Position numbers and translations under genes: made by a program
Notes under the pieces: generated by a model
Database searches by the model: none
What the model saw: only the letters and a program-made list of their open reading frames with translations
Told to the model about the DNA's origin: nothing
In this document: in pieces, positions 15,842 to 42,632 of the stretch
Layout of the letters: each line of letters begins with the position of its first letter
Numbering within the stretch: the stretch's first letter is position 1
NCBI GenBank assembly: GCA_937124965.1
Contig: CAKZLB010000042.1
Span: 1 to 49,262, forward strand
Direction: 5' to 3'
DNA: 49,262 bases
Source: an uncultured Bacteroidota bacterium
Lineage (GTDB): Bacteria; Bacteroidota; Bacteroidia; NS11-12g; UBA9320

Positions 15842-15875
15842 CACGAGAATTCATCGTTATGTCGGGAACATCTGC

Positions 15876-15883: not shown

Positions 15884-15980
15884 CAAAAAATTCTATAAGT
15901 CTTCAGCATAGCACTAAATCCAATATATAAGATTTTTAAGATGTTTGAGTTTATAGTAATTCAAACACTTAACAAAATAT

Positions 15981-16430: not shown

Positions 16431-17680
16431 TATCTCCTCCTTTTAGGTTTATTTCCGCTGGATTTTCTCTGGTTAGACCTTCCTTGGTTTGATCTTGGAT
16501 TTCTATTTGCAGATGGTTTTTGAGCTTTCGGTTTTTCAACTATTTCATCTGTCGGCTCAAACCCTTCTAAGGTTTTAGTTTTTGGGTTAAAACCTATTAG
16601 TTTGGCAATATTCTTAATTAAGTCCAATTCTTCAATACTCACTAAAGAAACGGCCTCACCGTTTGCTCCTGCTCTGCCCGTTCTTCCAATTCGATGGACA
16701 TAATCTTCAGGGACATTCGGCAATTCATAGTTTACAACATGTGGCAAAAGAGGAATATCTAATCCTCGTGCAGCTATATCAGTAGCAACTAATACACGTA
16801 CAGTTCCTTTTTTGAAATCTGCTAATGCTTTAGTACGAGCATTTTGGCTTTTGTTTCCGTGAATAGCCGCAGCATTGATGCCATTTTTGGACATTTTTTC
16901 GGCAAGTTTATTTGCACCATACTTAGTTCTAGTAAAAACCAAAACCTGTCTCCAGTTACCCTTTTTAATTAATTCAATAATTAATGCTGGCTTCTTTTTC
17001 TTGTCAACTCTGTATACCGTTTGATTGATTTTGTCGACGGTTGTGTTTTCAGGTGTTGCTTCTACAATTGCTGGATTAGTTAAGAAGGTATTTGCTAATT
17101 GTTTAATTTCCTTGGAGAAAGTAGCTGAAAAAAGTAGGTTTTGACGTTTTGTAGGTAGAAGTCTTAGAATTCGCTTTATATCACGCAAGAACCCCATGTC
17201 TAGCATTCTGTCTGCTTCATCTAGAACGAGATGCTCAACTTGACTTAGGGATAATTTATGCTGTGATTCTAGATCCAAAAGTCTTCCTGGCGTTGCAACC
17301 AATATATCAACACCTTTTTGTAGTGCATTTATTTGAGGATTTGCACTTACTCCACCAAAAATAACCGTGGAACGAATGTCCAGAAACTGGCTGTATTGCT
17401 CAAGATTCATAAGAATTTGCGCAGCTAATTCTCGTGTAGGTGTAAGAATTAGCACTTTAATTGGGCGTTTCCGTTGAACAGGAGATTCGGACAAAATCTG
17501 TAAAAGCGGTAAAGTAAAACCTGCAGTTTTGCCAGTACCTGTTTGTGCCGATGCAAGTAAATCGCCTCCTTTAAAGATTGCAGGAATTGCTTTTTCTTGA
17601 ATTGTTGTGGGCGTTTTATATCCTTGACGGCTTAAAGCCTTCAATAACGGCTCGGATAAGCCTAGTGAGTTAAATGACAT
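16427..17680 (-). CDS. DEAD-box RNA helicase, RhlE-like
   Basis: A 417-residue ATP-dependent RNA helicase. All core motifs are visible in order: Q motif ([10 protein letters not shown], about residues 24-33), Walker A AQTGTGKT (45-52), PTRELA, DEAD ([13 protein letters not shown]), SAT (LFSATFS), and in the second RecA domain [10 protein letters not shown] and [10 protein letters not shown]. The C-terminal ~45 residues are a low-complexity basic tail rich in Lys, Arg, Asn, Gln and Ser ending KPKRRRY, as in RhlE proteins, which act in ribosome assembly and RNA decay. The gene is convergent with the cold-shock gene and overlaps its last four bases. Confidence 0.92.
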
Positions 17681-17791
17681 TTAATAATATTGAATTAACA
17701 AATGACATAGAAAAAAATGCCATTTCTGAAAACTTTGACGAAGATATAGAGTTTATACTAGTGAGCAAGCATTATTAAATTCAATCTTCCT

Positions 17792-18706
17792 ATGAAAACT
17801 ATATTAGTTACTGGCGCTTCCGGCTTAGTTGGTTCGCATTTGTGTATGAAACTTTTGGACAAAGGATACAATGTTAAGCGCTTGGGTAGGCAGGTTGTCA
17901 ACGGTGCCCCAAATCGATTCTCATGGGATGTGAAGAACATGAAAATTGATGATGAAGCACTCAGTGGTGTTCATGCAATCATTCACCTTGCTGGTGCAAA
18001 TATTAGCGAAGGTAGGTGGACAGATAACAGAAAAAAAGAGATTGTTGATAGTCGAGTGAACTCAACTAATTTGTTGCTTGAAGCAGTAAAGCGTACAAAG
18101 CCACCGTTAGAAACGTACATCACGGCTTCAGCTATTGGTTACTATGGAGCAGTAACAACTGACCATATTTTTAAAGAGGATGATAATCCTGCAACAGATT
18201 TTATTGGAGAAGTATGTTCACGTTGGGAGGACGCTGCAAATCAATTTAACGATATTAAGGTCAGAACGGTTGCGCTCCGAACTGGAGTAGTTTTAACAGC
18301 TAAAAATGGGCCCTTACAAAAAATGAAGCTGCCCGTTGCGCTGGGTATTGGTTCTGGACTGGGGAAAGGGAGTCAATACTTTCCTTGGATTCACATAAAC
18401 GACCTCTGTGATATGTACATTTATGCCTTAGAGCATTCTAACATATCAGGGCCGTACAACGCGGTAAGTCCAGAGCATATAACAAATTTGGAGTTTACAA
18501 AGAATATTGGTAATGCATTAAGGAGAAAAGTGTTTTTACCAAATGTACCTAGTTTTATCCTGAAGTTAATTTTTGGACAAATGGCAGTTATTTTTTTAGA
18601 AGGGAGTCGAGTGTCTTCACAGAAAATAGAACACGAAGGGTATTTATTTACCTATAAATCATCTCAAAAAGCACTTAACGACCTAGTTGGAAACAAGTCT
18701 AGTTAA
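17792..18706 (+). CDS. TIGR01777-type SDR epimerase/oxidoreductase (YfcH-like)
   Basis: A 304-residue extended short-chain dehydrogenase-like protein. The nucleotide-binding motif [11 protein letters not shown] is at residues 7-17, HLAGANI near 67-73, and a YYGA segment marks the active-site Tyr region. The C-terminal part ([28 protein letters not shown]) matches the DUF1731 tail that defines the TIGR01777/YfcH group. The true substrate of this family is not known. It diverges from the helicase gene and converges with the UDP-xylose synthase gene, overlapping it by 8 bp. Confidence 0.88.
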
Positions 18707-19673
18707 ACTCTCTTGGGTGAGCATACTTGTACAAGTCATCTTTAGGCAGATTCTTGAAGTATTCGTAGGTAATCTTAAGACCCTCTTGGCGGGAGTACTT
18801 AGGCTCCCAATTTAAGAGCTCTTTTGCTTTTGTGATATCAGGTTTACGTTGCTTAGGATCGTCTTTTGGAAGATCTTTTAAGACTATTTTTTGGTCAGTA
18901 CCAGTTAAAGCGATAATCTCTTTAGCAAAATCTAATATGCTAATTTCGTCTGGGTTACCAATATTTACGGGATGAGCATAATCACTCATAAGTAATCTAT
19001 AAATACCTTCCACTAAATCATCTACATAACAGAAACTTCTTGTTTGGCTACCATCACCAAAAACTGTGATATCTTCACCACGCAATGCTTGACCAATAAA
19101 AGCGGGCAACGCTCTTCCGTCATTCAGTCGCATTCTTGGGCCATACGTGTTGAATATTCTAACGATTCGAGTTTCCACTCCATGGAATGTATGATAAGCC
19201 ATGGTCATGGCCTCTTGGAATCGTTTAGCTTCATCATAAACACCACGCGGACCTACAGGGTTTACATTACCCCAGTAGTTTTCATCTTGAGGGTGAACCA
19301 TTGGGTCTCCGTACACCTCCGACGTACTAGCGATGAGCATTCTTGCTCCTTTTGCTAATGCTAATCCTAAGCAGTTATGAGTTCCTAGCGAACCAACTTT
19401 TAGGGTTGGAATTGGAATTTTAAGGTAATCAATTGGACTTGCAGGAGAGGCGAAATGTAAAATGTAATCTAATTCTCCAGGAATATGAATAAACTTAGAG
19501 ACGTCATTATGATAAAACTCAAATTGCTTTAAAGGCATCAAGTGTTCTATATTCTTTAGGTCACCAGTTATAAGATTGTCCATGGCTATAACATGGTAAC
19601 CTTCTTTTATAAAGCGATCGCAAAGATGTGAACCTAAAAAACCTGCACCTCCAGTGATTAATACCTTTTTCAT
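18699..19673 (-). CDS. UDP-glucuronate decarboxylase (UDP-xylose synthase)
   Basis: A 324-residue SDR enzyme predicted to decarboxylate UDP-glucuronate to UDP-xylose with NAD as an internal cofactor. The glycine motif [10 protein letters not shown] is at residues 8-17, the catalytic triad lies in STSEVYG (Ser/Thr 116-118) and Y146xxxK150 (YDEAK), and [13 protein letters not shown] is the signature that separates UXS from other epimerases. It is the last gene of a leftward operon; its ATG overlaps the stop of the upstream UDP-glucose dehydrogenase by 4 bp, and that enzyme makes its substrate. The product probably feeds capsule or lipopolysaccharide glycan synthesis. Confidence 0.92.
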
Positions 19674-20980
19674 TTAATTGTTTCTCTACCTATGGAATAA
19701 TATGTAAACCGTTCCTCTGACATTTTTTCGAGGTTAAATAAGTTTCTACCATCGAAAATAGTCTTGTTTTTTAGACCTTTTCCAATTCTTTCAAAATTTG
19801 GGTTTCTAAATTCCGCCCATTCAGTTGCAATAATTAAAGCATCTGCATTTTCTAACGCAAGATACATATCGTTTGCATAGTTGATTTTATCACCAACAAC
19901 GTCCTTAACGTTTTTCATTGCCTCAGGGTCGAAAGCAGTCACGATCGCACCAGCTTTCAACAACTCATCAATCAAATATAAAGCGGGAGCCTCTCTAATA
20001 TCATCGGTATTTGGCTTAAATGCTAAACCCCAAAGCGCGAATTTCATTCCTTTCAAATCACCAGCAAAGTGTGCTTTAATCTTTGGTATCAAGTACGTCT
20101 TTTGACTTTCATTTACCTCTTCTACTGCATTTAATATCTTGAAGTCATAATTTACTTCCGATGAACTTTTTACAAGGGCTTTTACGTCTTTAGGAAAGCA
20201 CGATCCTCCATATCCAATACCCGGAAATAAGAATCTATTTCCAATACGAGTATCAGTTCCTATACCCTTCCTAACCTTGTCAACATCGGCACCTACCAAT
20301 TCACAAACTCTCGAAATTTCATTCATGAAAGTAATTTTCGTAGCTAAGAATGAGTTTGCGGCATACTTAGTCAATTCTGCAGATTTTTCATCCATGAAAA
20401 TAACAGGATTACCTTGGCGTACAAAGGGAGCGTATAATTCTGCCATCAGTTTTTGAGCACGCTCTGAACTGCAACCAACAACAACCCTGTCTGGTTTCAT
20501 AAAATCGTCAACCGCAACACCTTCTCGTAAAAATTCTGGATTTGAAACGATGTCAAAGTCGCCTGAATAATTTGCAGCAACCGCTTTGTGAACTTTTTCT
20601 GCTGTACCAACTGGAACAGTGCTTTTGTCAACAATGACTTTGTATTCCGTCATTATTTTTCCTAACTGTTCTGCAACACCCAGAACATATGACAAGTCTG
20701 CTGAACCATCTTCACCTGGAGGTGTTGGTAGAGCCAAGAAGATAATTTTGGCCTCTTTTATGGCCTCTTCAATATTTGTAGTAAAATGAAGCCTACCTTC
20801 CTTTAAATTTCGTTCAAATAGCTTTTCTAAACCGGGTTCGTATATGGTAATTTTTCCACTTTGAAGACTTTTTACTTTAGCTTCATCGATATCTACGCAG
20901 GTTACTTGATTTCCTGTTTCAGCGAAACACGTCCCCGAAACTAATCCAACATAACCTGTTCCAATAACTGCAATTCTCAT
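19670..20980 (-). CDS. ugd: UDP-glucose 6-dehydrogenase
   Basis: A 436-residue NAD-dependent enzyme that oxidises UDP-glucose to UDP-glucuronate. The N-terminal dinucleotide-binding motif is GTGYVGLV (residues 7-14). The catalytic cysteine is Cys261 in [10 protein letters not shown], at the expected place for the family, and SNPEFLREG and [10 protein letters not shown] are typical signature segments. The length agrees with bacterial Ugd. It is the middle gene of the operon, 1 bp from the stop of the DegT aminotransferase gene and overlapping the start of the UDP-xylose synthase gene, so the two steps UDP-Glc to UDP-GlcA to UDP-Xyl are encoded side by side. Confidence 0.95.
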
Positions 20981-20981
20981 T

Positions 20982-22094
20982 TTACTTAATGAATTTCAAT
21001 ATGGTTTGAATGACTGTATTTTGATTTTCTTCTGATAACTCAGTACAAATTGGTAATGACAACACTTGTTTACAAAGGTCTACTGTTACGGGGAAATTTC
21101 CAACTGTTTTAAAAGCCTCTTGCTCATTCAATGGAACAGGATAATAAACCATACTTGGAACACCGTTTTCAGCGAGGTAAGCCTTCACAGCATCGCGATC
21201 TACACCATTTAACTTCAGTGTGTACTGATGAAAAACATGTGTTGAGTTTTCAACTCTCTTTGGAGTAATAAAGCGTGGGTCATTTTTAAACGCTTCATCA
21301 TATCGTGCTGCGACTTTTCTTCGTGCATCACTATAACTATCTAAATGTTTAAGCTTAACATCTAAAATCGCTGCCTGCAACGTATCTAGTCTTGAGTTAA
21401 CTCCTATTACACTGTGATAATATTTTTTCTTTTGTCCATGGTTACAAATCATTTTTGCTTTGGCAGCCAACTCCGAGTCATTGGTCAATATTGCACCACC
21501 ATCACCATAACAGCCTAAGTTTTTGGATGGAAAAAAAGATGTGGTTCCAAAGTGACCAATACATCCAGCAGAGCGCTGCACTCCATCTTTCATAGTAATT
21601 TTTGCCCCAATCGCTTGAGCTGTATCTTCAATAACGAATAGACCCTGCTCATCTGCAATTTCCATAATAGCATCCATATCAGAGCATTGCCCGAAGAGAT
21701 GCACTGGAACCACAGCTTTTGTATCTGCCGTTATAGCTGATTTGAACTGATGTATGTCAATCTGAAAGGTATCTGGATCCACATCAACTAAAACAGGTGT
21801 GAGTCCAAGAAGTGCGATAACTTCTGCTGTTGCAACATACGTGAAACATGGAACGATTACTTCATCACCTGGTTTAAGCCCAAGAGCCATAAGAGCCACT
21901 TGAAGCGCATCGGTTCCATTAGCACAAGGTATGACATGCTTTACGTCAAGATAATTTTCTAAATTTTTAGCAAATTCTTGAACCTTTGGTCCATTAATGA
22001 AGCTAGTTGAATCAATAACGCCTTGAATGGCATCATCAACTTCATGTTTAATTTTTTGATACTGACCTTTCAGGTCAACCATTTGTATCGACAT
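20982..22094 (-). CDS. DegT/DnrJ/EryC1/StrS family sugar aminotransferase
   Basis: A 370-residue PLP-dependent enzyme that converts a nucleotide-linked keto-sugar to an amino-sugar. PLP-binding Lys191 lies in SFFPSKNLG followed by CYGDGGA, and Asp157 in EDTAQAIGA is the pyridine-nitrogen partner; both are standard for the family. The N-terminal MVDLKGQYQKIK and CANGTDALQ resemble the WbpE/FdtB subgroup (3-amino sugars), though assignment of the exact sugar is inference. It is the first gene of the leftward aminotransferase, ugd, UDP-xylose synthase operon. No matching dehydrogenase or acetyltransferase for a full amino-sugar pathway is in this window. Confidence 0.9.
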   Translation of the reverse strand: MSIQMVDLKGQYQKIKHEVDDAIQGVIDSTSFINGPKVQEFAKNLENYLDVKHVIPCANGTDALQVALMALGLKPGDEVIVPCFTYVATAEVIALLGLTPVLVDVDPDTFQIDIHQFKSAITADTKAVVPVHLFGQCSDMDAIMEIADEQGLFVIEDTAQAIGAKITMKDGVQRSAGCIGHFGTTSFFPSKNLGCYGDGGAILTNDSELAAKAKMICNHGQKKKYYHSVIGVNSRLDTLQAAILDVKLKHLDSYSDARRKVAARYDEAFKNDPRFITPKRVENSTHVFHQYTLKLNGVDRDAVKAYLAENGVPSMVYYPVPLNEQEAFKTVGNFPVTVDLCKQVLSLPICTELSEENQNTVIQTILKFIK

Positions 22095-22179
22095 ACCTCT
22101 GTAATAAAGGCTGCAATATTAACCAAAACTTCACCTAATCCAGTGATTTTTACGTTATTTGCTCTGTTAATTCTTTGAA

Positions 22180-22950
22180 ATGAAATATACCATTCGTCTT
22201 CTGTTCACCACTTTGTTTGTCACCGCTATTGCACTTAACGTTGATGCTCAACAAAAAACTACGTTCGCTCCAAAGCAAGGGTACTTGTTTGATGTTCAGT
22301 ACAATATCCAAAATCCTGGTGGAGATTTAGAAGAAAGATTCGGATGGAATTCTGCGATCGGAGTGGGAGCGCGGTATAAGTTTCTTAATGGTTGGATTGC
22401 GGGTGTTCAGTACAATTGGATGTTTGGTAACCGAGTTAAGGAGGTTAGTATGTTTGACTCGATACTTGGACCCTCTCAAGAAATCATTGATAAAGACGGT
22501 TTGTTTTCTGTTGTACGACTTAACCAAAGAGGACATACCTTAACCATGAATGGAGGCAAACTGTTTCCGCTTTTAAAGCACAACAAAAACTCTGGAATTT
22601 TAGTAGACGTTGGCTTTGGGTTTATGCTTCATAGAATCGACATATATGCCTCATCGTTATCTGTTCCTCAAATTACTGAAGATTACGAAAAAGGATATGA
22701 CCGCCTAACTGGAGGTTTAGCGCTTACTCAATTTATAGGTTACCAACATTTAGATCCGAAGAAAAGAGCAAATTTTCAAGTTGGTTTTACCTTCCAACAA
22801 GCCTTTACCAAGAGTATGCGGAGTATTGATTTTGATACGCGTGTTTACAATCCAACAAAACGAACAGATTTACTTAATGGTTTCAGAATTGGAATCACTA
22901 TTCCTGTTTATACCAAAAAAACAAGCGAGGAAGAATTTTTTATTGACTAA
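22180..22950 (+). CDS. Outer-membrane beta-barrel protein, unassigned family
   Basis: A 256-residue protein with a signal peptide (residues 1-23, ending VDAQ). The rest alternates aromatic and small residues in amphipathic stretches (GVGARYKFLNGWIAGVQYNWMFG, GILVDVGFGFMLHRI, FQVGFTFQQAF, FRIGITIPVY), the pattern of an outer-membrane beta-barrel. I do not recognise a specific family. Its stop codon and the Kdo transferase start overlap as TAATG, so the two genes are translationally linked, which suggests an envelope-assembly role. Confidence 0.75.
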   Translation: MKYTIRLLFTTLFVTAIALNVDAQQKTTFAPKQGYLFDVQYNIQNPGGDLEERFGWNSAIGVGARYKFLNGWIAGVQYNWMFGNRVKEVSMFDSILGPSQEIIDKDGLFSVVRLNQRGHTLTMNGGKLFPLLKHNKNSGILVDVGFGFMLHRIDIYASSLSVPQITEDYEKGYDRLTGGLALTQFIGYQHLDPKKRANFQVGFTFQQAFTKSMRSIDFDTRVYNPTKRTDLLNGFRIGITIPVYTKKTSEEEFFID

Positions 22951-35102: not shown

Positions 35103-35177
35103 GGGCGATTAGCTCAGTTGGTTTAGAGCATCTGCCTTACAAGCAGAGGGTCGTAGGTTCGAATCCTACATCGCCCA
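35103..35177 (+). tRNA. tRNA-Val (anticodon TAC)
   Basis: A complete tRNA: acceptor stem GGGCGAT pairs with ATCGCCC, D arm GCTC..GAGC, anticodon stem TCTGC/GCAGA with loop CTTACAA (anticodon TAC, reading GTA and related valine codons), and T arm GTAGG TTCGAAT CCTAC. The discriminator is A; CCA is not fully encoded (ACCT follows). Its last 46 bp including one trailing base are repeated exactly at 42587-42632, showing it is the integration target of the element to its right; the copy here stays complete and functional. Confidence 0.96.
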
Positions 35178-35178
35178 C
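35133..35178 (+). repeat. Left attachment core (attL) within tRNA-Val
   Basis: The 46 bp begin in the anticodon stem and run one base past the discriminator; they are identical to 42587-42632. The flanking bases differ on both sides (C versus A before, C versus A after), fixing the limits of the identity block. Confidence 0.93.
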
Positions 35179-35197
35179 CTGATAATCAATCACTTAG

Positions 35198-35225
35198 AAG
35201 CCTTCTCAAACGAGAGGGCTTTTTA
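35198..35225 (+). terminator. Terminator after tRNA-Val, supplied by the element
   Basis: A 10-bp stem AAGCCTTCTC / GAGAGGGCTT (one G-T wobble) with loop AAAC (35208-35211) is followed by TTTTTATTT. It lies 20 bp right of the att core, so it is carried by the element and replaces the native tRNA terminator now displaced to 42637. Confidence 0.8.
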
Positions 35226-35246
35226 TTTGCATATTATTTGCATACT
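35225..35246 (+). repeat. Left-end tandem repeats ATTTGCATA(C/T)T, candidate integrase arm sites
   Basis: Two copies of ATTTGCATA start at 35225 and 35236, exactly 11 bp apart (one helical turn). The same unit occurs three times at the other end of the element in the same orientation. The layout is that of arm-type binding sites of a tyrosine integrase; the binding protein is inferred. Confidence 0.7.
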
Positions 35247-35268
35247 TTTTCGATAATTAACGTGGGCA

Positions 35269-36660
35269 TTATTTTAAATATATTTCTTCTTTCACGTAAC
35301 TTGCGTTAAGCCAAAAACAATGCTTTGTAAACTCTGTTAATCCTGTCAATTTATCCGCAACAGGTAATTCATATGTGTCCTCTGCATTTCTAGCGTGCGG
35401 TCTAACGTGGCTTACTCTGTTTTCGGTTTTCTTTGGAAAATTTGTCTTTCTAATTCCTTTGTCAGTTAATTCTTTTACGATTTCTCCGTTTGAAACTGTC
35501 TTTACCATTTCTTCCCAAACATCTTTTGCTTCAAGAATATCAGAATGTGGCATATTCCAAAACTTTACTTTTCGTAAAATCAAATTTTCGCCTTCAAATT
35601 GGTAAAACACAAAGAAAAATTTACTTTCTAATATGTTCTTAAAATCAGAATCTTCCCAATCGGTTTCTACAAGTTCTTGGTATTCAAATGTTGGAAATGA
35701 AATATCTTCTTTCGGCAAATTATTTTCTTTAAGTCGAATAGTTTTAACTTGAATATCTGCTTTTTCAAACTCTTCTATTTTTTTACCTAGTTCTATTCCA
35801 AGGATTGCATTTGTAAGATTCGCAAAATAGCTTTTAGCCTTTTGGTTTAGTTCCAAACCTAATTCTTGTTCAATCTGTTCTGCGGATTTCCCATAAAATG
35901 GGTGAAATTTCAGAATTACTATTTCCTCAATTGAACGAACTTCTTCTAAAATTTGCGGTCGTACAATTATTTTTCCGTAAACTGCTTCTTCTTCTTGGGC
36001 AATATTTGCAATGATATGATTTACATATCCTTGCTTTAATGAATATGCTCTTTGCTTTGCTCTTTCCTCATTAAAAGGTTGGTCTCTAAACGATTTTAAT
36101 GCTGTCGAGCCTTTGGTACAAGCTCCAAGATAGAATGTATCTCCTTCTGATAATTCGTGTGCTTTTCCTTCTTTTATTTTTTGGTTGATAAATTCCCAAT
36201 CACGCTGAATAATTTTTAAATCTTCGCTTGGGTATTTCCAACCTTCAACCAATTTTATTATGTAATCGAGTAAATCTAAATCTTTATCGTGAAGGTAAAA
36301 CACCAAAAGTAAATGAGCATTTTTCTTCCAAAATGAACTGGTTTCAAAATCCTCTTTATGAACTTCTAAATAATTTATGATATTTAAAACCAATCTTTCT
36401 TTTGAACGAAATTCTCCATTTCTCAATGTTTTTAAAGGACTTGATTTTAGTTCAATTCCTGCTTCTTTAAAATCAGGTTCGGCATCAGAATTAGGTTCGT
36501 AACCGAAATAGAATTTTTCTAAAATTTGACCAAAATTGCCTTTTCCTTTATAGCCGTGTTTTTCAATTTCTTCGCCACAGGCTTGTCTTAAAGTTTGGTT
36601 TTTTAGCAGTTTGGCAAAATCAATAATTGAATCTGCCGAAGTAATATCAAGCATATTCAA
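35269..36660 (-). CDS. Sau3AI-family type II restriction endonuclease
   Basis: A 463-residue restriction enzyme, close to the length of Sau3AI (489). The N-terminal half is a MutH/Sau3AI nuclease domain: Glu48 in GQILEKF, Asp63, then Glu70 and Lys72 in GIELKSSP, and FRSKERLVL (84-92); these match the E..D-x6-ExK catalytic set of MutH. The C-terminal half is a second domain, as in Sau3AI, where it resembles MutH but lacks catalysis and acts as an allosteric site. Family knowledge predicts cleavage at GATC. The gene overlaps the methyltransferase gene by 14 bp. The cassette contains no GATC by eye, in accord with this specificity. Confidence 0.88.
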   Translation of the reverse strand: MNMLDITSADSIIDFAKLLKNQTLRQACGEEIEKHGYKGKGNFGQILEKFYFGYEPNSDAEPDFKEAGIELKSSPLKTLRNGEFRSKERLVLNIINYLEVHKEDFETSSFWKKNAHLLLVFYLHDKDLDLLDYIIKLVEGWKYPSEDLKIIQRDWEFINQKIKEGKAHELSEGDTFYLGACTKGSTALKSFRDQPFNEERAKQRAYSLKQGYVNHIIANIAQEEEAVYGKIIVRPQILEEVRSIEEIVILKFHPFYGKSAEQIEQELGLELNQKAKSYFANLTNAILGIELGKKIEEFEKADIQVKTIRLKENNLPKEDISFPTFEYQELVETDWEDSDFKNILESKFFFVFYQFEGENLILRKVKFWNMPHSDILEAKDVWEEMVKTVSNGEIVKELTDKGIRKTNFPKKTENRVSHVRPHARNAEDTYELPVADKLTGLTEFTKHCFWLNASYVKEEIYLK

Positions 36661-37885
36661 ACTGATTTATTTGTTTATAAAGTTCTTCTCCAATTTTTTC
36701 GATTACTCCAACTACCAAAGCATTTCCCATAAAAAATGCTCGTTTCGTGTCGGTAATCCCATCAATTTTTGTGTGATTATCGGGGAACATATTCAGTCTT
36801 TCCAATTCAATTGGCGTTAGTCTACGTAATCCTCTATCCGAAACAACAACGTGTTTAAATCTAGAAGGGGATTTACCGCCTTCTCCTGTGATTATAGTTC
36901 TTGAAGCATTGTCTAAAGCGTCTGGGTATATCATTCCTCCTTCTGAATATTTGTAAACAAAACCATCTGGTGACTTACGCTCAATGGTTTTTGCACCTTT
37001 TAAATATTCCCATTTGTCTTTGTCTTTATCGTCAATAAAAAACTCGGAAGTAACTTCTCCATTTTGCAAAATGTCGCCTAAAACAATTCTGTTTCCATCA
37101 TAATTAGGTTCTGTTTTAGTAGTGTAAACTTTACCTTTTATAAGTAATCCTGTATTTTGAAAAGGCGACAATTTTCCGTTTTTATTGAAATTATTGGTTA
37201 TTTCAACTAAATCTCCTTTTAATTCAATTTCTTGTATTGAGTTTGTTTTTGCTACAGGAAAAGCATTTGCAATTGTTCCTTCCTTTGTTAGCCAATCTAT
37301 TTTTTTGGATTTTTGAAGTCTTTTATATACGTCTGTTGATTTATGGTAACCAATAAAGAAAACTCTTCTTCGTCTTTGTGGCATTCCGTATTCTGCTGCA
37401 TTAATTACACGCCATTCAACTGCATAGCCAAGTTCATTTAAACTTTGCAACATTACTGCAAAATCACGACCTCTTTGTTTTGCTGGCGATTTTAAAAGTC
37501 TATCTACATTTTCTAGAAAAAGGTATTTTGGTTTGTTCTTTTTTTCTTCTAAAATTCTGTGGATTGACCACCAAAGAACACCTTTTTTGCCTTTCAATCC
37601 TTTTGAGTTATGTAGAGTTGTTGCAACAGAATAATCTTGACACGGAAAACCACCAACTAACAAATCGTGATTAGGAATTTCGTCTGTCGGAACTGTCGAG
37701 ATATCTTGGTTTGAATGGTTTTCTTTTCCGAAGCGCTTTTCATAAACCATTGAAGCGTGTTGTATTTTCGTTGAAGGTTCCCATTGGTTACTCCAAACAA
37801 CTTTATAATTACTTTTCTCAAGTCCAAGTCTGAAACCACCGACTCCTGCGAATAGTTCTACTACTTTTAATGTTTTATTTTCCAT
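36647..37885 (-). CDS. C5-cytosine DNA methyltransferase (type II modification)
   Basis: A 412-residue DNA methyltransferase that would methylate C5 of cytosine and protect the host from the neighbouring endonuclease. Conserved motifs are in order: I, ELFAGVGGFRLGL (10-22); IV, GGFPCQDYS with nucleophile Cys82; VI, ENVDRLLKSP; VIII, PQRRRRVFFIGY; a target-recognition region of about 150 residues; IX, RRLTPIELERLNMFPD; X, GNALVVGVIEKIGEEL. The pairing with a Sau3AI-like nuclease predicts GATC methylated at the C. Its start overlaps the controller gene end by 11 bp and its end overlaps the endonuclease start by 14 bp, so the order is controller, modification, restriction. Confidence 0.93.
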   Translation of the reverse strand: MENKTLKVVELFAGVGGFRLGLEKSNYKVVWSNQWEPSTKIQHASMVYEKRFGKENHSNQDISTVPTDEIPNHDLLVGGFPCQDYSVATTLHNSKGLKGKKGVLWWSIHRILEEKKNKPKYLFLENVDRLLKSPAKQRGRDFAVMLQSLNELGYAVEWRVINAAEYGMPQRRRRVFFIGYHKSTDVYKRLQKSKKIDWLTKEGTIANAFPVAKTNSIQEIELKGDLVEITNNFNKNGKLSPFQNTGLLIKGKVYTTKTEPNYDGNRIVLGDILQNGEVTSEFFIDDKDKDKWEYLKGAKTIERKSPDGFVYKYSEGGMIYPDALDNASRTIITGEGGKSPSRFKHVVVSDRGLRRLTPIELERLNMFPDNHTKIDGITDTKRAFFMGNALVVGVIEKIGEELYKQINQFEYA

Positions 37886-38183
37886 TTTGTTGAGTTTGAT
37901 AATAGTGTATTTTTTCTTCTGCTACCTTTAGAATTTCGGAAGTAGATTCGGTATATCTTAATTCTTCTGCAATTTTTTCGGAGAACCAATTTATTATTAA
38001 TTCTCTTTCTGGAAGTTCGTAGAACTTTCCAAGTCTTATTATTTGTTCCATAGTTGGTTTTCTGGTGTTTTTCTCAAATTTGCTAATAAGAGACTGGTCA
38101 ATATCTACTTCTGCTGCTACTTTTCTTAGTATCAATTGTTTTTCCTCCCTTGCACATTTTAATGTGTCGCCTAATGTCTTCAT
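37875..38183 (-). CDS. XRE-family HTH regulator, probable restriction-modification controller (C) protein
   Basis: A 102-residue protein with an N-terminal XRE helix-turn-helix (about residues 7-62: LKCAREEKQLILRKVAAEV..IDQSLISKFEKNTRKPT) and a C-terminal helical tail ending in a possible coiled segment (EILKVAEEKIHYYQTQQ). It is slightly longer than classic C proteins (about 80 residues). It is the first gene of the controller-methylase-nuclease operon, overlapping the next gene by 11 bp. A promoter (TTG-N19-TAATTTTG) and an inverted repeat TTGGTCA/TGACCAA lie directly upstream, which suggests autoregulation and timing of methylase before nuclease; the mechanism is inferred. Confidence 0.82.
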   Translation of the reverse strand: MKTLGDTLKCAREEKQLILRKVAAEVDIDQSLISKFEKNTRKPTMEQIIRLGKFYELPERELIINWFSEKIAEELRYTESTSEILKVAEEKIHYYQTQQNGK

Positions 38184-38216
38184 TGGTCAAAATTGTTTTG
38201 GACAAATAATGACCAA
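38183..38216 (-). promoter_or_regulatory. Candidate controller operator (inverted repeat TTGGTCA / TGACCAA)
   Basis: The seven-base half sites at 38183-38189 and 38210-38216 are perfect inverted repeats with a 20-bp spacer. One half overlaps the -7 promoter element and the other touches the start codon, so a bound regulator would block its own transcription. A third half-site, TTGGTCA, lies at 38281-38287. Confidence 0.6.
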
Positions 38217-38243
38217 AATTACACATACTATTTGAATTTCCAA
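38214..38243 (-). promoter_or_regulatory. Promoter of the restriction-modification operon
   Basis: Read on the minus strand, TTG (38243-38241), a 19-nt spacer and TAATTTTG (38221-38214) match the Bacteroidota promoter TTG-N19-TAnnTTTG exactly. The expected start near 38207 gives a leader of about 24 nt before the controller ATG. Confidence 0.75.
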
Positions 38244-38481
38244 GATTCAATAAGATAAATTCGAATTATTGATATCAATCTTGGTCAAAACTAAAGCATT
38301 AAACTTTTCTTCAAACTGATTGAAAAACTAGTTTTAAGTCTTCTGGTTATATTTTTAACAACAATCTTTTCAAAACTTGTTCCTTTTCAACTTTTCAAAA
38401 ATAGCACTTGCGCAAAAAGTTGATTGCTGCGTTTCCTTGATAGTTCGTGGTTTTCTTTTGGATGTCCCCCTCTGGTACATT
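38244..38481. other. Intergenic stretch between Rep and the restriction-modification promoter
   Basis: About 240 bp of AT-rich non-coding sequence with one further TTGGTCA half-site (38281-38287) and no convincing gene. It separates the Rep gene end from the cargo cassette and would be a natural cargo insertion point. Confidence 0.5.
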
Positions 38482-39546
38482 CTAACTACTGTTTTTGTCA
38501 ATACGAAAGGCTAATAGCTCTAACAGCTCGAAGGGTGCTACATAACCCGTTAGCGGTCGTTTAGTCTTGTCATTTATCCAGTTGCCTTGATCGGTCTTAA
38601 ATGTCCAGTGTTCGTAATTGTCTGTAAGTGTGATAGTCGAAGCTATTTTTTCGTCTGATTTAGGAAGATTGAAACCGAATCGCTCAAATATTCGCTGTCC
38701 TGACATCGCTTGTAAGATGTTGTGAAGTGCTTTTGCATATATTTTTCGGTCTCCTTTTTTAGCTTTTTTAATATCTGGTTCGGTGAAGATTTTACTTCCG
38801 TACTTGATAATCTCAATTAACACCTTTTCATGATTTGTAATCGGTATAATTTTTTGTGCCTTGTGCGTTACGTGTTTTATTTTTTTGGTTTTAATTGTCT
38901 TTAGCCATTCAGTAACCAATAGTTCAGCCATTTCTTTCGTCTTAACGATAATATGATAGTGAGGGTTATAGGTTCTTGCTTTCGCATTAAAGTTGCATTC
39001 TAACGAACGTATTCCGACAAGTTTCAAACCAGTACCTCTTTGATTCCGTTTCTTTTGCCTTTCGTGAATTAGTCGAAACGTTCTTAGCATTCCTTTTATG
39101 TAATAGGGCAATAGTCCTTCTTTACATGACTTAATAGTTATCGTTACGAATTGCGCATCGTTCCAGTTTTTCAATTCAGGTAGATAGCGGTTTATTACGT
39201 CTGCTTTTCGGTTGGCGTTACAAACGGTGCAAATTCTATTCTTGCAATATTTACCATAAACTTTGCCGTTACTGCTTACCACACTATTTTGACAATGAAA
39301 GGTGTTCCAATATTGTTTAACGGCTTCGTGTTGGTTTAATTCCTTTGCGACATCAACAAGACTAATAATCATTGAATTTGTTATTAGCTTTCTTTTGGTT
39401 CGACCTTTGGAAGATGTCTCGCTTCCTAATTCAGACCCTGTTCCTATTAATAATATTGGTGTTTTTGGTGGTTTAGTTGTCCCACTCTGTACTAATGTAT
39501 TGAAAACACCCTTTCCAGAGTGCTTATACGGACTATTTGCCTTCAT
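38482..39546 (-). CDS. Rolling-circle replication initiator (Rep, HUH endonuclease)
   Basis: A 354-residue Rep protein that would nick one DNA strand to begin rolling-circle replication. The three motifs are present: motif 1 FVTITIK (133-139), motif 2 NPHYHIIV with the HUH-type His196/His198, and motif 3 EIIKYGSK with the single catalytic Tyr249. A CxxxxCxxC knuckle (Cys101, Cys106, Cys109) followed by NANRK lies before motif 1, as in plasmid Rep_1-type initiators. One catalytic Tyr favours a plasmid-type Rep. Its start and the upstream HTH gene stop overlap as TAATG, so they are translationally coupled. The role in an integrated element (replication after excision or transfer) is inferred. 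Confidence 0.85.
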   Translation of the reverse strand: MKANSPYKHSGKGVFNTLVQSGTTKPPKTPILLIGTGSELGSETSSKGRTKRKLITNSMIISLVDVAKELNQHEAVKQYWNTFHCQNSVVSSNGKVYGKYCKNRICTVCNANRKADVINRYLPELKNWNDAQFVTITIKSCKEGLLPYYIKGMLRTFRLIHERQKKRNQRGTGLKLVGIRSLECNFNAKARTYNPHYHIIVKTKEMAELLVTEWLKTIKTKKIKHVTHKAQKIIPITNHEKVLIEIIKYGSKIFTEPDIKKAKKGDRKIYAKALHNILQAMSGQRIFERFGFNLPKSDEKIASTITLTDNYEHWTFKTDQGNWINDKTKRPLTGYVAPFELLELLAFRIDKNSS

Positions 39547-39875
39547 TAGTTCCCTAATAAGTTGTGAGCGTTTTCTTTGTCTTCTTGCTTCGTGTTTTGG
39601 CGACCGCTTTTGATGTAGCTCGTTAAGTCCTCACGAGAAAAATAAAGGCGTTTAGATACCTTCATGAAAGGCAATTCACCTTTTGAAACTTTCGAATAGA
39701 TCGTTGGAACGGATAGCGATAAAAATTCGGCTGCTTGTTTAATTGTGATTAACTCAGAATTGACTTGATTCTGGTTTGGGTTTAATGAATTTGCGTTAAT
39801 AGCATTGTCAACGCATTTCTGAATAATTGTCTCTAAATCGCTTAATGGGATTTGAGTAAGAATAATGTTTTCCAT
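39546..39875 (-). CDS. Excisionase-like helix-turn-helix protein
   Basis: A 109-residue small DNA-binding protein with a MerR/HTH_17-type winged helix at about residues 44-92 (ITIKQAAEFLSLSVPTIYSK..ELPFMKVSKRLYFSREDL), the fold used by excisionases and by the small regulators beside Bacteroidota integrases. It overlaps the Rep start by one base (TAATG), so it probably controls Rep or excision. It may be the directionality factor of the element; no biochemical evidence is implied. Confidence 0.82.
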   Translation of the reverse strand: MENIILTQIPLSDLETIIQKCVDNAINANSLNPNQNQVNSELITIKQAAEFLSLSVPTIYSKVSKGELPFMKVSKRLYFSREDLTSYIKSGRQNTKQEDKENAHNLLGN

Positions 39876-39940
39876 AACCTTGTGTTATTTTGTTGGTGCA
39901 AAAGAAAACAAGGTAAACGGCTAATAATGAGAATGGTAAC

Positions 39941-39967
39941 TATGCAAATTGCAAAATTGCAGTTTGC
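39941..39967. promoter_or_regulatory. Repeat-rich candidate binding site upstream of the HTH-Rep operon
   Basis: TATGCAAAT (39941-39949) is the exact reverse complement of the end-repeat unit ATTTGCATA. It overlaps GCAAA..TTTGC inverted arms (39944-39948 and 39963-39967) with an inner ATTGC direct repeat. The site lies about 70 bp upstream of the HTH gene. It could bind the HTH protein or integrase, or be an origin; single chance copies of the unit do occur elsewhere, so this is tentative. Confidence 0.35.
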
Positions 39968-39983
39968 GTAATTTAGGTAATGA

Positions 39984-41168
39984 CTAATTTTCTGGTAATG
40001 GTTGGATAAATTCAACGCCTTGGGAGACGGTAGGGGCTTTCTCGAATGTACTTTTACTTACATCACACTTAAAAGAGTTTTTGCAGATAAATAAATATTG
40101 CGATATGGTTGGTCTAGTTTCGACATTGAAATAACCTTTTGAAAACAGGCTTTTAAGAATAGAACTCAAAAGAGTTTTGTTTGATTTTTTATCGTCAATC
40201 CAAAAGTGAGTTCCTTCTTCAATAAGTTTTTTACTTACAAAAAGTTTCATCGTATCGTTATAAAGCTGTTCACTTTTGAAAATGCTTTTTAAAGACAAAT
40301 CAACTTTTTTCTCTAATGAAATATTTGGTTTTAGCCACTTAACAAAACTTTCACAAATTTCAATAAACGCCTGTCTTAGTTCTGATTCCTCATAAAACAA
40401 GTTAATATGTTCTAATGTCAGTTTGAGCGTGTTTCTTTCCTGTTCGATTAACCAACTTAGATCGCTAGTCTTTAGATGCGAATCAATAATCGAATTACGG
40501 CTTCGAACGTCCTGTAATCTTTCGTTAAGGTAAGCCGAATAAACATCTTCGACTTTTTTGGCTGGTTGTATTTTATCGAACATTTCGAAAGTGAACCGCC
40601 TTAATTGTTCCATTCTATGCAGATATATAGGAAAACCAACCAGCTTAATGTCGGGTTCTCGGTTTACAGATAAGTTATCGAATTTCATTTTTGTCGCTTG
40701 TGTTCGATAGGTCACGATTGCGTTTTCAAATTGATTTCCTGTAAATACTAATCGTTGTCGAATAGTAATTTCTTTAGTGACGATTGCATTCACTAGCTCG
40801 TGAGCTTCTTCATATAAAAACTTGTTCTTTAATACGGTTGGATATATCTCTTTTGCTTCTGGATAGATGTAGGTCAATAAAATAAAACGGATAAAATTCG
40901 AGTCTTGATAGTTGCTGTTTCCAGCTAACCAATATTTATGCTCGTCACCGCTTTTAACATATTCAGGATATGGGTATTCTCCGACTGGGTTGTTTGCTCC
41001 AGCTTTTACGATGTTTATAACATATTCGTCTCGCATCATAGTAATATGGTTTAGTATTTCACGAGCGTTCATAAGCGAAACGCCTTCTAATGCGTCTAAT
41101 CCGTATTTCTTAATATTGTCGCAATAGATTGATATATCACCGTTAGTTAGATTTTTCATATTATTCAA
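39984..41168 (-). CDS. Element-encoded protein of unknown function
   Basis: A 394-residue protein that I do not recognise. It looks soluble and mostly helical, with no signal peptide or transmembrane segment. Visible landmarks are a Tyr/Pro-rich stretch at about 65-75 (YPYPEYVKSGDEHKYW), a helical middle with many Glu, Lys and Arg, and a C-terminal ~110 residues (KVDLSLKSIFKSEQLY..GTHFWIDDKKSN..LLSSILKSLFSKGYF) that might be a winged-helix-like domain. Its ATG overlaps the integrase stop by 8 bp, so it is co-expressed with integrase. A role in recombination, replication or regulation of the element is possible. Confidence 0.7.
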   Translation of the reverse strand: MNNMKNLTNGDISIYCDNIKKYGLDALEGVSLMNAREILNHITMMRDEYVINIVKAGANNPVGEYPYPEYVKSGDEHKYWLAGNSNYQDSNFIRFILLTYIYPEAKEIYPTVLKNKFLYEEAHELVNAIVTKEITIRQRLVFTGNQFENAIVTYRTQATKMKFDNLSVNREPDIKLVGFPIYLHRMEQLRRFTFEMFDKIQPAKKVEDVYSAYLNERLQDVRSRNSIIDSHLKTSDLSWLIEQERNTLKLTLEHINLFYEESELRQAFIEICESFVKWLKPNISLEKKVDLSLKSIFKSEQLYNDTMKLFVSKKLIEEGTHFWIDDKKSNKTLLSSILKSLFSKGYFNVETRPTISQYLFICKNSFKCDVSKSTFEKAPTVSQGVEFIQPLPEN

Positions 41169-42426
41169 AGTTCATTAGTGATTCGGAAAACTCTTTTTTG
41201 GTATCATCGTCAAAACCACCAAAATAGTCTTGGGTTGTTTTTGGGCTTTGGTGTCCTAAACTTTCTTGCATAAATGCCATTGAAGCCCCGTTTTTTATTC
41301 CTTGGGTCGTGAAGCTGTGTCTTGCCCAATAAGTCGAAATTTCGTCCGTTAATCCGTTTGCGGTTGCTAGCTTTTTAATATGCTGGTTTATGAATCTGGT
41401 GAAGGCTTGAATTTTTAGTCTTTGTACTTTTGGTTCTGTAATACCACTTAAGAACGGAAAAACGAAGTTTTCAGGGCTTTTGTCCTCAGAACCATAAAGT
41501 TCTATAACATGATTTGCATAGTCGTTCAAATGGACGGTAATAGGCTTTAAATTCGCTTTTCGAGTGAGCTTCGTCTTTGCTCTAATGAACGTTAACGAGC
41601 CTTCGCTTATATCTTTATATTTCAATAGACAAATATCTTTTATATTCATGCCGTTACAAGCATACGAAAAGAACCAGAAATCTTTCGCTTTTTGTTGATA
41701 GTGGTTTGCTGGGTTCGACTTAAATAAAACGCTTAATTGCTGTTTAGATAAGGCCTTTTTAACCTTCTTAGTTGCTGGCACTTGATATTTCCGTTTTCCG
41801 AATGGATAGAACTCTTTATTAATTTCTTTTTCGTCTATTGCCTTATTAAATAGAGTTCTTAGAGTTCTCACATACATACTGACGGTTGTCGAAGATTTCT
41901 CCAGATTATTTATCATAAAAGTTTCAAAACTGTTTAACCATTTCTTATCAATATCATATAGCGTTAACGAAAGGTAATTTTTTTTGTAATGCTCGCAATA
42001 TCGGATAAAAGACTTTTGAGCTAGATCATAGTTACTAGCTGTATTTAATTGATTGTTATCGGTTAGTTCTTTTATCTGGGATTTATACAAATATTCTAGC
42101 CTAATAGATTCGCCTACTTTCAGATAGATTTTCTTTTCGAACTTCTCAAAAGAAAATGGAGTTAACGATTGTGCTATATTTTCAGCGTGTAATAAAACAG
42201 CATCAATTTTTTGTTTTTCGGCCTTGTGTTCTTTTCTGGGTTTAGCCGTATAAATCGAACTAAATTCTTCTTGTGTGTATTTGAATTTCGTTGCAAATAA
42301 TTTCTGTTTCCTTGGGTGCGAAGTAAAGACTTGAAGTTTTACAGGAAACTTTCCGTTTTTGTTCGCTCGTCTGGTGTCTAAATATACTGAGATATTATAG
42401 CCCTTTTTTGTTGTTACGTCCGTCAT
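41161..42426 (-). CDS. Tyrosine recombinase/integrase of the tRNA-Val element
   Basis: A 421-residue integrase with three parts: an arm-binding domain (about 1-105, NISVYLDTRRANKNGKFPVKLQV), a SAM-like core-binding domain (about 110-205) and the catalytic domain (about 225-421). Visible catalytic residues are Lys284 or Lys286 (IRAKTK), Arg369-His370 (ARHSFTT), His392 (LGH) and the nucleophile Tyr401 (DYFGG). The position of the first catalytic Arg (GLR in Xer proteins) holds Asn261 (NGMNIKDI), and the usual first His is Tyr. IntDOT of CTnDOT likewise lacks that Arg. It sits at the right end, reading into the element, and starts 13 bp from the end repeats. Confidence 0.92.
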   Translation of the reverse strand: MTDVTTKKGYNISVYLDTRRANKNGKFPVKLQVFTSHPRKQKLFATKFKYTQEEFSSIYTAKPRKEHKAEKQKIDAVLLHAENIAQSLTPFSFEKFEKKIYLKVGESIRLEYLYKSQIKELTDNNQLNTASNYDLAQKSFIRYCEHYKKNYLSLTLYDIDKKWLNSFETFMINNLEKSSTTVSMYVRTLRTLFNKAIDEKEINKEFYPFGKRKYQVPATKKVKKALSKQQLSVLFKSNPANHYQQKAKDFWFFSYACNGMNIKDICLLKYKDISEGSLTFIRAKTKLTRKANLKPITVHLNDYANHVIELYGSEDKSPENFVFPFLSGITEPKVQRLKIQAFTRFINQHIKKLATANGLTDEISTYWARHSFTTQGIKNGASMAFMQESLGHQSPKTTQDYFGGFDDDTKKEFSESLMNFE

Positions 42427-42438
42427 AGTGATTTGAAA

Positions 42439-42471
42439 ATTTGCATACTATTTGCATACTATTTGCATACA
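42439..42471 (+). repeat. Right-end tandem repeats ATTTGCATACT, candidate integrase arm sites
   Basis: Three exact copies of ATTTGCATAC start at 42439, 42450 and 42461, each 11 bp apart. They match the two-copy array at the left end in sequence, spacing and orientation. The array begins 13 bp upstream of the integrase ATG and overlaps its predicted transcription start. Confidence 0.75.
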
Positions 42472-42501
42472 AAAGTAATAAATAACCATATACCAACGCA
42501 A
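42470..42501 (-). promoter_or_regulatory. Promoter of the integrase gene
   Basis: On the minus strand, TTG (42501-42499), a 21-nt spacer and TACTTTTG (42477-42470) fit the Bacteroidota promoter. The start would fall near 42463, inside the third end-repeat, so a protein bound to the repeats would repress integrase. Confidence 0.65.
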
Positions 42502-42586
42502 AGAAACACAAACTAAAACGGCTTTAAACCCTTGTAAATAGTGGAGTTTAGATATTAAAAGAATAATAACGAAAATATGGACATTA

Positions 42587-42632
42587 TGCCTTACAAGCAG
42601 AGGGTCGTAGGTTCGAATCCTACATCGCCCAC
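42587..42632 (+). repeat. Right attachment core (attR), duplicate of tRNA-Val 3' end
   Basis: This is a 46-bp exact copy of 35133-35178. Only the 3' part of the tRNA is present, with no 5' half, so this is not a second tRNA gene; it marks the element/chromosome boundary. Confidence 0.93.

What the first reader, a model, noticed from the sequence alone, without database searches (positions are those of the whole stretch)
35133..42632. Compact tRNA-Val-integrated element joining a tyrosine integrase, an HUH Rep and a restriction-modification cassette
Seen: a perfect 46-bp duplication of the tRNA 3' end, seven co-directional genes in about 7.45 kb, no conjugation or phage structural genes. Known: tyrosine integrases target tRNA 3' ends, and rolling-circle Reps are usually on free plasmids. 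Inference: the element is an integrative plasmid or a satellite that excises, replicates by rolling circle and probably moves with help from another element. Its backbone (integrase, 394-aa protein, excisionase-like HTH, Rep) may define a family in Bacteroidota with swappable cargo after Rep.
Basis: partly seen in the sequence, partly recalled or inferred. Interest (0 to 1): 0.8.

Follow-up and report, generated by a model that had tools for sequence, protein, structure and literature searches.

The report
Integrating mini-plasmid carrying a restriction system
A 7.5-kb piece of mobile DNA sits in a valine tRNA gene and carries its own replication protein, a likely replication start site hidden inside that protein's gene, and a restriction system; related elements with swapped integrases, integration sites and cargo occur across the Bacteroidota.

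Summary
In detail: a perfect 46-bp repeat flanks seven minus-strand genes at tRNA-Val (integrase, 394-aa orphan X, excisionase-like HTH, Rep, Xre, C5-methylase, Sau3AI-family endonuclease). It is one element: other Bacteroidota carry the same order with their own flanking repeats at tRNA-Val, -Asn, -Arg, -Leu, ssrA, mnmE or secA. Over 28 loci the conserved core is HTH-Rep. Integrases and Reps diverge independently (rho 0.03, 16 loci), X mostly keeps only its position, and cargo is often restriction-modification or defence (10 of 15 loci scanned, proteins picked by eye).

New here: a 23-nt DNA block, ATACATTAGnACAnAnnSGGACA, about 46 nt into rep, often preceded by a stem-loop. Third codon positions in it barely vary (0.96 against 0.47 elsewhere in rep); it lies in another reading frame in one relative and its core lies outside the gene in another. 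I read it as Rep's nick site (double-strand origin). A packaging-site reading was tested and rejected for one phage.

Best reading: an integrative element with its own Rep_1 (pC194-type) rolling-circle replicon; excision, nicking and transfer are inferred. New variant of a known kind; nearest described are streptococcal IMEs with rolling-circle initiators.

The parts
35103..35179 (+). tRNA-Val (tac), the integration target, left intact
   Evidence: ARAGORN
35133..35178 (+). att copy at the tRNA (46 bp, anticodon loop to 3' end)
   Evidence: same borders in L015; 44-bp copy at tRNA-Val in L040
42587..42632 (+). att copy at the far end, identical
35225..35245 (+). arm-type repeats near the tRNA end (ATTTGCATAT, ATTTGCATAC); role inferred
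   Evidence: same 10-mer at both ends of L015 and L035
42439..42470 (+). arm-type repeats at the integrase end (3 x ATTTGCATAC, 11-bp spacing); role inferred
41161..42426 (-). tyrosine integrase, 421 aa (Phage_int_SAM_5, Phage_integrase)
39984..41168 (-). X: 394-aa protein of unknown fold and function, the gene between Int and HTH
   Evidence: no Pfam/NCBIfam/PADLOC/PHROG match; exactly one ORF of 100 aa or more in that position in 14 of 18 loci with an integrase; single-sequence model pLDDT 36, unusable
39546..39875 (-). excisionase-family HTH_17 protein, 109 aa, next to rep
   Evidence: HTH upstream of rep in 23 of 28 loci, 17 of them within 10 nt
38482..39546 (-). Rep, 354 aa, Rep_1 (pC194) class HUH initiator: YNPHxH, E245-x3-Y249, CxxxxCxxC
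39478..39500 (-). conserved DNA block ATACATTAGTACAGAGTGGGACA inside rep: candidate nick region / double-strand origin; predicted nick between 39501 and 39500 (inference)
39504..39525 (-). 9-bp stem-loop (GGAA loop) 3 nt before the block
   Evidence: MFE -9.9 kcal/mol (RNA parameters), z -2.4
37875..38183 (-). Xre-type regulator, 102 aa; probable controller of the R-M genes or repressor (inference)
36647..37885 (-). C5-cytosine DNA methyltransferase, 412 aa
35269..36660 (-). Sau3AI-family type II restriction endonuclease, 463 aa (GATC expected from the family)
   Evidence: NF040973 552.9 bits; PDB 4pxg E 2.4e-76

Best explanation
It is an integrative element with its own rolling-circle replicon. 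The tyrosine integrase recombines the 46-bp end of tRNA-Val, probably using the ATTTGCATAC arm sites, and the HTH_17 protein is the likely directionality factor (function inferred from family). After excision the circle is kept or amplified by Rep, a pC194/Rep_1-class HUH endonuclease. Rep is proposed to nick its own gene just 5' of ATACATTAG, where a stem-loop followed by a conserved 23-nt block forms a double-strand origin overlapping the coding sequence. Cargo, here a Sau3AI-type GATC restriction-modification cassette, follows Rep and favours retention and phage exclusion. Shown: boundaries, gene content, family-wide gene order, DNA-level constraint on the block, independent variation of integrases and targets. 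Inferred: excision, nicking at the block, replication, cargo benefit, transfer by a helper.
For: Same order with flanking repeats elsewhere: L015 tRNA-Val 46 bp, L040 tRNA-Val 44 bp, L035 tRNA-Asn 50, L036 tRNA-Arg 17, L054 tRNA-Leu 16, L045 a tRNA 16, L039 ssrA 15, L034 mnmE 21, L053 secA 17. HTH just upstream of Rep in 23 of 28 loci; integrase on the same strand upstream in 18 of 28. Rep_1 in 23 of 23; invariant YNPHxH and E-x3-Y-x2-K; pC194 uses Tyr214 and Glu210, the same spacing (passage in PMC5703833). Block: up to 3 mismatches to the degenerate pattern in 25 of 28 loci, 9-nt core only in 2, absent in 1. Third base 0.957 (4 columns) against 0.473 at 63 other conserved 4/6-fold columns, maximum 0.74. 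Out of frame in L044, core outside the ORF in L015. Upstream stem: mean -6.0 against -2.8 kcal/mol for control windows, p 4e-6, 25 loci. Rep residues 1-25, where the block lies, are under pLDDT 50 in the model. One match in its own 4.09-Mb genome at up to 2 mismatches.
Against: No circular form, empty site or transfer was seen. Relatives gave no empty site: 2 of 23 other genomes matched the flanking gene, and neither stretch held a tRNA. None of the 8 whole contigs tested had overlapping ends. The stem is weak or absent in about half of the loci (z below -1 in 13 of 25; none in L046). The block pattern was derived from the same loci it is counted in. It is missing from L032 and from more distant Reps (L017, L030, L018) and from the three plasmid records checked (one has a one-mismatch core 484 nt upstream of its rep match). 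Two phage contigs carry the block with no Rep found in their records, which the origin reading does not explain. Rep fold search gave no significant hit (best E 0.06; HUH transposase 4er8 Z 7.2 among unrelated rows).
Confidence: 0.72

Rival explanations
1. Integrative and mobilizable element of a non-canonical sort: Rep is first of all the relaxase, the block in rep is its oriT, and a co-resident conjugative element supplies coupling protein and pore.
For: Streptococcal IMEs use rolling-circle initiators as relaxases, shown for a Rep_trans protein (passages of PMC7563843; PMC5704250). The same genome has a VirD4-type coupling protein, a MobA-type relaxase and MobC within 15 kb of a third copy of this element's att end. 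One of 23 Reps has a weak MobA_MobL match, E 0.0083.
Against: Rep is Rep_1, not one of the initiator families named there (Rep_trans, Rep_2, PHA00330, Viral_Rep). No coupling protein recognised in the element. No transfer tested. Compatible with the best explanation rather than exclusive of it.
Confidence: 0.35
2. Phage satellite: the element is packaged by a helper phage, and the block in rep is a packaging (cos/pac) site copied from the helper.
For: The only two contigs with an exact match to the strict pattern in the viral collection (L059, L060) have it upstream of a small-terminase gene, about 0.1 kb in L060 and 0.5 kb in L059 with a 115-aa ORF between (terminases by PHROG models). A related Rep sits in a 45-kb viral contig (L032).
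Against: L089, L091 and L092 share 4442 bp at 100% with L059, including both terminase genes, but have other DNA where L059 has the block and no block at up to 4 mismatches in the stretches held, so it is not that terminase's site. The ten relatives of the L060 terminase lack it too. In the relaxed scan the 11 further contigs have the match inside a long ORF (the print was cut in part). No capsid or packaging gene recognised in the element.
Confidence: 0.12
3. The conserved block is not an origin but an operator or translational control element of the HTH-rep operon.
For: It lies near the start of rep, just after the HTH gene; a stem-loop there could act on the mRNA.
Against: Stem sequence and strength vary while the block after it is nearly fixed; the block is asymmetric, unlike a typical HTH operator; the pattern suits a nick site beside a hairpin. 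None of this was tested directly.
Confidence: 0.2
4. A dead island: an old integrated plasmid kept only for its R-M genes.
For: Relics exist in the family (rep in pieces in L057 and L058; a rep C-terminal fragment in L016).
Against: All seven window genes are open, the 46-bp repeats are identical, and catalytic residues and the block are intact.
Confidence: 0.12

Closest known systems
Streptococcal IMEs with rolling-circle initiators (IMESag-rpsI, IME_Sga2069_rpmE, IME_oriT)
   Same: Small integrated elements with a recombinase, an RCR initiator and variable cargo; many target the 3' end of a tRNA or housekeeping gene (passages of PMC5704250, PMC7563843)
   Different: Those initiators are Rep_trans, Rep_2, PHA00330 or Viral_Rep types; host is Firmicutes; here Rep_1 type, Bacteroidota, no coupling protein recognised
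Bacteroides mobilizable units NBU1/NBU2 and other Bacteroidota IMEs
   Same: Tyrosine integrase and tRNA 3'-end targets; Int followed by small accessory genes (recalled)
   Different: Those encode a MobP relaxase; here no relaxase recognised but a replication initiator
pC194/pUB110-type Rep_1 plasmids and 4.6-5.7-kb Bacteroides/Phocaeicola plasmids
   Same: Rep_1 domain, E-x3-Y catalytic pair; weak match to the Bacteroides/Phocaeicola plasmid Reps, 23.5-26.7%
   Different: Free plasmids; dso usually upstream of rep in RCR plasmids, inside rep in the pT181 family; the three plasmid records checked lack this block
Riemerella anatipestifer 10K genomic island
   Same: Flavobacteriaceae tyrosine-integrase island at a tRNA with 53-bp repeats and an observed excised circle (passages of PMC6764341)
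   Different: Gene content other than integrase not seen by me; no Rep was mentioned in the passages read
Sau3AI restriction-modification system
   Same: Endonuclease 553 bits to the Sau3AI equivalog, C5 methylase beside it
   Different: Carried here with an Xre gene as cargo of a mobile element

Membership tests
Rep_1 (pC194-type) rolling-circle replicon | Rep_1 domain | tested here: met
   Window Rep 33.3 bits against cut-off 33.2; 23 of 23 aligned Reps at E<=0.01
Rep_1 (pC194-type) rolling-circle replicon | HUH motif and catalytic Tyr with Glu four residues before | tested here: met
   Invariant YNPHxH, E245, K248, Y249, K252 over 23 sequences
Rep_1 (pC194-type) rolling-circle replicon | double-strand origin nicked by Rep | tested here: inconclusive
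   Conserved block and stem-loop found; nicking needs biochemistry
Rep_1 (pC194-type) rolling-circle replicon | autonomous plasmid form | tested here: inconclusive
   No overlapping ends in 8 whole contigs; reads were not available
Integrative and mobilizable element (canonical) | integrase with att sites | tested here: met
Integrative and mobilizable element (canonical) | canonical relaxase | tested here: not met
   None recognised among the seven window proteins
Integrative and mobilizable element (non-canonical, RCR initiator as relaxase) | RCR initiator encoded | tested here: met
   Rep_1, though not one of the families described for such elements
Integrative and mobilizable element (non-canonical, RCR initiator as relaxase) | transfer by a helper | not testable with these tools
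   Candidate helper genes on C74 only
Phage satellite | helper packaging site or capsid-diverting genes | tested here: inconclusive
   No such gene recognised, but X is unknown; the block is not the packaging site of the phage in L059; other sites not excluded
Prophage | virion structural genes | tested here: not met
   none recognised
Sau3AI-type R-M | Sau3AI-family endonuclease plus C5 methylase | tested here: met

The most novel reading that the evidence does not exclude
A so far unnamed, phylum-wide class of integrative elements in Bacteroidota whose only fixed part is an excisionase-Rep pair with the replication origin written into the rep gene. Everything else, integrase, integration target and cargo (often restriction-modification), is exchanged around it. 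The same 23-nt site does triple duty as coding sequence, replication origin and transfer origin, and phages that carry stray copies of it may be replicated, or interfered with, by the element's Rep.
Probability: 0.2. Interest if true: 0.82.

Novelty: new variant of a known kind. Interest (0 to 1): 0.62.

Why it matters
It gives a compact, testable replicon for a phylum in which the integrated mobilizable elements named in the review I read (Tn4399, Tn4555, NBU1, NBU2) use relaxases, and a predicted nick base that can be tested with one purified protein and a short oligonucleotide. The independent variation of Int and Rep suggests that integration specificity is a plug-in for this replicon. The cargo, often restriction systems of different types near Rep, suggests a shuttle for R-M genes among Bacteroidota. 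The origin-in-gene arrangement is a clear case of one DNA stretch under both coding and non-coding constraint.

Tried and rejected
Packaging-site reading of the block: suggested by the strict viral scan, rejected for L059 by near-identical phages without the block and not supported by L060's relatives. Origin sought by shared 10-mers (27-28 loci, one base shuffle as control): the 700 nt after rep gave 14 against 13 sequences, the 900 nt before 19 against 17, rep itself 23 against 17. Circular contigs: none of 8 with terminal overlap. Empty site in relatives: not informative. X as a known domain: no Pfam family above cut-off for the window X or for nine other X genes (the tenth protein, from L058, was host MnmE); RteC-like fold was an idea from memory and was not shown; single-sequence model unusable. 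Rep fold search: no significant match, HUH chains only among unrelated rows. 30-nt block against annotated phages: only chance-level hits (11 records, best E 0.2); against plasmids: no match. Plasmid relatives of X: none. Rep in annotated phages: no match. Literature: nine searches showed no description of this family in their listings; two returned nothing, and subscription papers and preprints are not held, so this is weak evidence of absence. From papers I read only passages found by term (PMC5704250, PMC11389934, PMC5703833, PMC6764341, PMC7563843); all others were seen as search listings.

Rows dropped before counts: L050 and L052 duplicate L014 and L015. L043 (near twin of L042) was left out. 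L046, L056, L057, L058 and L043 were left out of the codon test (23 loci). L032 has no block and L047 starts at it, so 25 of 27 were folded. L019, a contig end from a same-genus genome that has a Rep N-terminus and the block at one mismatch, is not among the 28. One search stopped on a script error and was redone. Cargo was scanned by library in 15 of 28 loci, one to three proteins each, picked by eye among the larger ORFs, so 10 of 15 is no unbiased estimate.
Full report
Observation. The 46-bp repeat is perfect and starts in the anticodon loop of tRNA-Val(tac). Seven main minus-strand ORFs lie between the copies. Integrase, excisionase-family HTH_17, Rep_1-class Rep, Xre protein, C5 methylase and Sau3AI-family endonuclease are supported by profiles (Rep by Pfam only); the 394-aa protein (X) matches nothing. 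Element G+C is 33.9% against 37.3% in the rest of the window. Arm-like repeats ATTTGCATAC/T stand at both ends, five of the six copies in the 49-kb window.

It is one element. Searches with Rep found it in 7 of 147 near genomes including its own, 3 of 395 genomes drawn from the phylum including its own (one of the two others weak, E 2.9e-4), and 26 loci in the named genome collection (from two peptide patterns, so a lower bound); the titles are Bacteroidota groups except one labelled Candidatus Dojkabacteria. Twenty-eight loci were compared: the window, L014 and L015, one viral locus (L032), and the loci without two duplicates. The HTH gene lies upstream of rep in 23 of 28, in 17 of these within 10 nt. 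An integrase lies upstream on the same strand in 18 of 28; four of the other ten are cut by the contig start within 2.2 kb of rep. Flanking repeats were found at tRNA-Val (window, L015, L040), tRNA-Asn (L035), tRNA-Arg (L036), tRNA-Leu (L054), a tRNA cut by the contig end (L045), ssrA (L039), and the 3' ends of mnmE (L034) and secA (L053). L049 has a 17-bp repeat at its contig end that resembles the tRNA-Leu site of L054, and the L044 contig ends in a sequence like the site of L034. tRNA and tmRNA were called by ARAGORN or Rfam (L045 at 32.2 bits, cut); mnmE and secA were read from C-terminal protein sequence by eye. The repeats of L036, L039, L045 and L054 are only 15-17 bp but fall on the 3' end of an RNA gene.

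What is conserved and what is not. For 16 loci with full Rep and Int, pairwise identities of the two proteins are uncorrelated (Spearman 0.03, p 0.74). Elements with the same or a like target tend to have closer integrases than Reps (L049/L054: Int 76%, Rep 41%; L034/L044: 62% and 43%; window/L015: 48% and 42%), but the third tRNA-Val element, L040, has an integrase only 29-32% identical to the other two. Exactly one ORF of 100 aa or more lies between Int and HTH in 14 of 18 loci. By sequence, eight of these X genes form one cluster and a few form pairs; the window's X joins none. A distant X relative stands beside Int and HTH in a genome without a recognised Rep next to them (L097). So the constant unit is HTH-Rep.

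A DNA signal inside rep. Shared short words were searched around and inside rep. A block, ATACATTAGnACAnAnnSGGACA, sits about 46 nt into rep. Against the pattern ATACATTAG[CGT]ACAA[AG][ACG]N[GC]GGACA it is present with up to 3 mismatches in 25 of 28 loci, as the core ATACATTAG in L015 and L053, and missing in L032. It is also in L019, a truncated same-genus locus outside the 28, and missing from the distant or partial Reps L017, L018 and L030. It is not a protein motif. The encoded codons (Thr ACA 18 of 20, Leu TTA 19 of 19, Gln CAA 14 of 15, Gly GGG 13 of 14, Thr ACA 19 of 19) have a mean third-base major frequency of 0.957 in the four 4/6-fold columns, against 0.473 over 63 other conserved 4/6-fold columns of rep, whose maximum is 0.74 (23 loci). 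In L044 the same DNA is in another reading frame. In L015 its core lies 58 nt before the start codon. The N-terminus it encodes is unstructured in the Rep model (residues 1-25 under pLDDT 50, as are 250-264; whole model 81.6). A stem-loop precedes it: mean energy -6.0 against -2.8 kcal/mol for windows further on in rep (p 4e-6), though z is below -1 in only 13 of 25 and some loci have no stem. In the window the stem is 9 bp with a GGAA loop, 3 nt before the block. The whole genome has one match at up to 2 mismatches, and one of 394 other phylum genomes has a match, at one mismatch.

Mechanism. Rep has the invariant HUH motif YNPHxH and E-x3-Y-x2-K. In pC194 RepA the nucleophile Tyr214 and the terminating Glu210 have the same spacing, and an origin inside the rep gene is known for the pT181 family (passages in PMC5703833). 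A hairpin beside a fixed block, next to an HUH gene, is what a nick site looks like. The base before the block varies and ATA follows; phiX174 and pC194 are nicked at TTG^ATA (recalled, from no call), and L057 reads CTTGATACATTAG. One contig, L047, begins exactly at base 1 of the block; with many contigs looked at this is a curiosity only. I conclude that the block is most likely the double-strand origin (about 0.7), possibly also an oriT.

The phage lead. The strict pattern hit two viral contigs, both upstream of a small-terminase gene (about 0.1 kb in L060; about 0.5 kb in L059, where a 115-aa ORF lies between and would overlap the last bases of the block; terminases by PHROG models), which suggested a packaging site. 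Phages L089, L091 and L092 share 4442 identical bases with L059 across both terminase genes but have other DNA in place of the segment with the block, and no block at up to 4 mismatches in the 7.2 kb held of each. So it is not the packaging site of that phage. The ten relatives of L060's terminase do not have it either, and L060's 35-kb record has no recognised Rep. Why phages carry the block stays open.

Cargo. In 15 loci one to three larger ORFs near Rep, picked by eye, were scanned by profile libraries. Ten carry R-M or other defence genes: Sau3AI type (window), type ISP/IIG (L035, L039, L043, L049), type I (L045), ThaI type (L053), type III methylase (L047), AbiL (L055), and a PADLOC candidate (L038). 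Three carry metal-transport or efflux genes (L034, L036, L044). L014 has no match; L054 has only a 16-bit ZorA match. In L035 the R-M gene lies between Int and X, not after Rep. Boundaries are not known for L038, L043, L047 and L055, so some of these genes may be neighbours. GATC occurs 4 times in the element's 7.5 kb against 23.5 in shuffles (0.17), and 76 times in the other 41.8 kb against 146.7 (0.52), which fits residence with a GATC enzyme but is a small count.

Transfer. No relaxase, coupling protein or phage structural gene was recognised in the element. On contig C74 of the same genome a third att copy with the element's terminal sequence (110 bp, 92%) is followed by KwaA/KwaB and, within 15 kb, a VirD4-type coupling protein, a MobA-type relaxase and MobC: a possible helper that uses the same attachment end. 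This is a lead, not a test.

Verdict. Observation confirmed. A new variant of a known kind: an integrative element with a Rep_1 replicon in Bacteroidota.

Noticed in passing
G000 contig C74:118975-119084 (L013 10976-11085): Third copy of the 46-bp att plus the element's terminal sequence (92%), with no tRNA called there; KwaA/KwaB directly beside it, and a VirD4-type coupling protein, MobA-type relaxase and MobC within 15 kb.
   Followed up: partly
L059 839-861 and L060 2740-2762: The rep block occurs in two phage contigs upstream of the small-terminase gene, with no Rep found in their records; near-identical phages have other DNA there.
   Followed up: partly
L032 9720-11176: A 54%-identical Rep gene in a 45-kb viral contig lies between 259-nt direct repeats (93%) that include part of the gene before it; a DNA-methylase gene follows 1.7 kb on; no HTH partner and no block.
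   Followed up: no
L109/L110 (G539 C1), joined coordinates 4988-13728 and 13727-22467: Exact 8741-bp tandem duplication of X-HTH-Rep and following genes inside a tRNA-Val element, starting just after the integrase gene; real or an assembly loop.
   Followed up: partly
L047 position 1: The contig starts exactly at the first base of the block, the predicted nick point.
   Followed up: no
window 35133-42632: GATC is about threefold rarer in the element, relative to shuffles, than in its flanks, matching its Sau3AI-type enzyme; only 4 sites.
   Followed up: partly
L016 8817-9185; L058 9989-10791; L057 9974-11019: Relics of rep: a C-terminal fragment (64% identity) after a DNA-invertase-type gene in a same-genus genome, a rep in two pieces about 65 nt after mnmE, and a rep in three pieces.
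   Followed up: no
L097 (G414 C34): Int - 126 aa - X - HTH order with no recognised Rep next to it; the only phylum-sample relative of the window's X outside its own genome.
   Followed up: no
window 38184-38481: 298 bp of AT-rich DNA without a called gene between rep and the Xre gene; a possible single-strand origin or promoter region.
   Followed up: no
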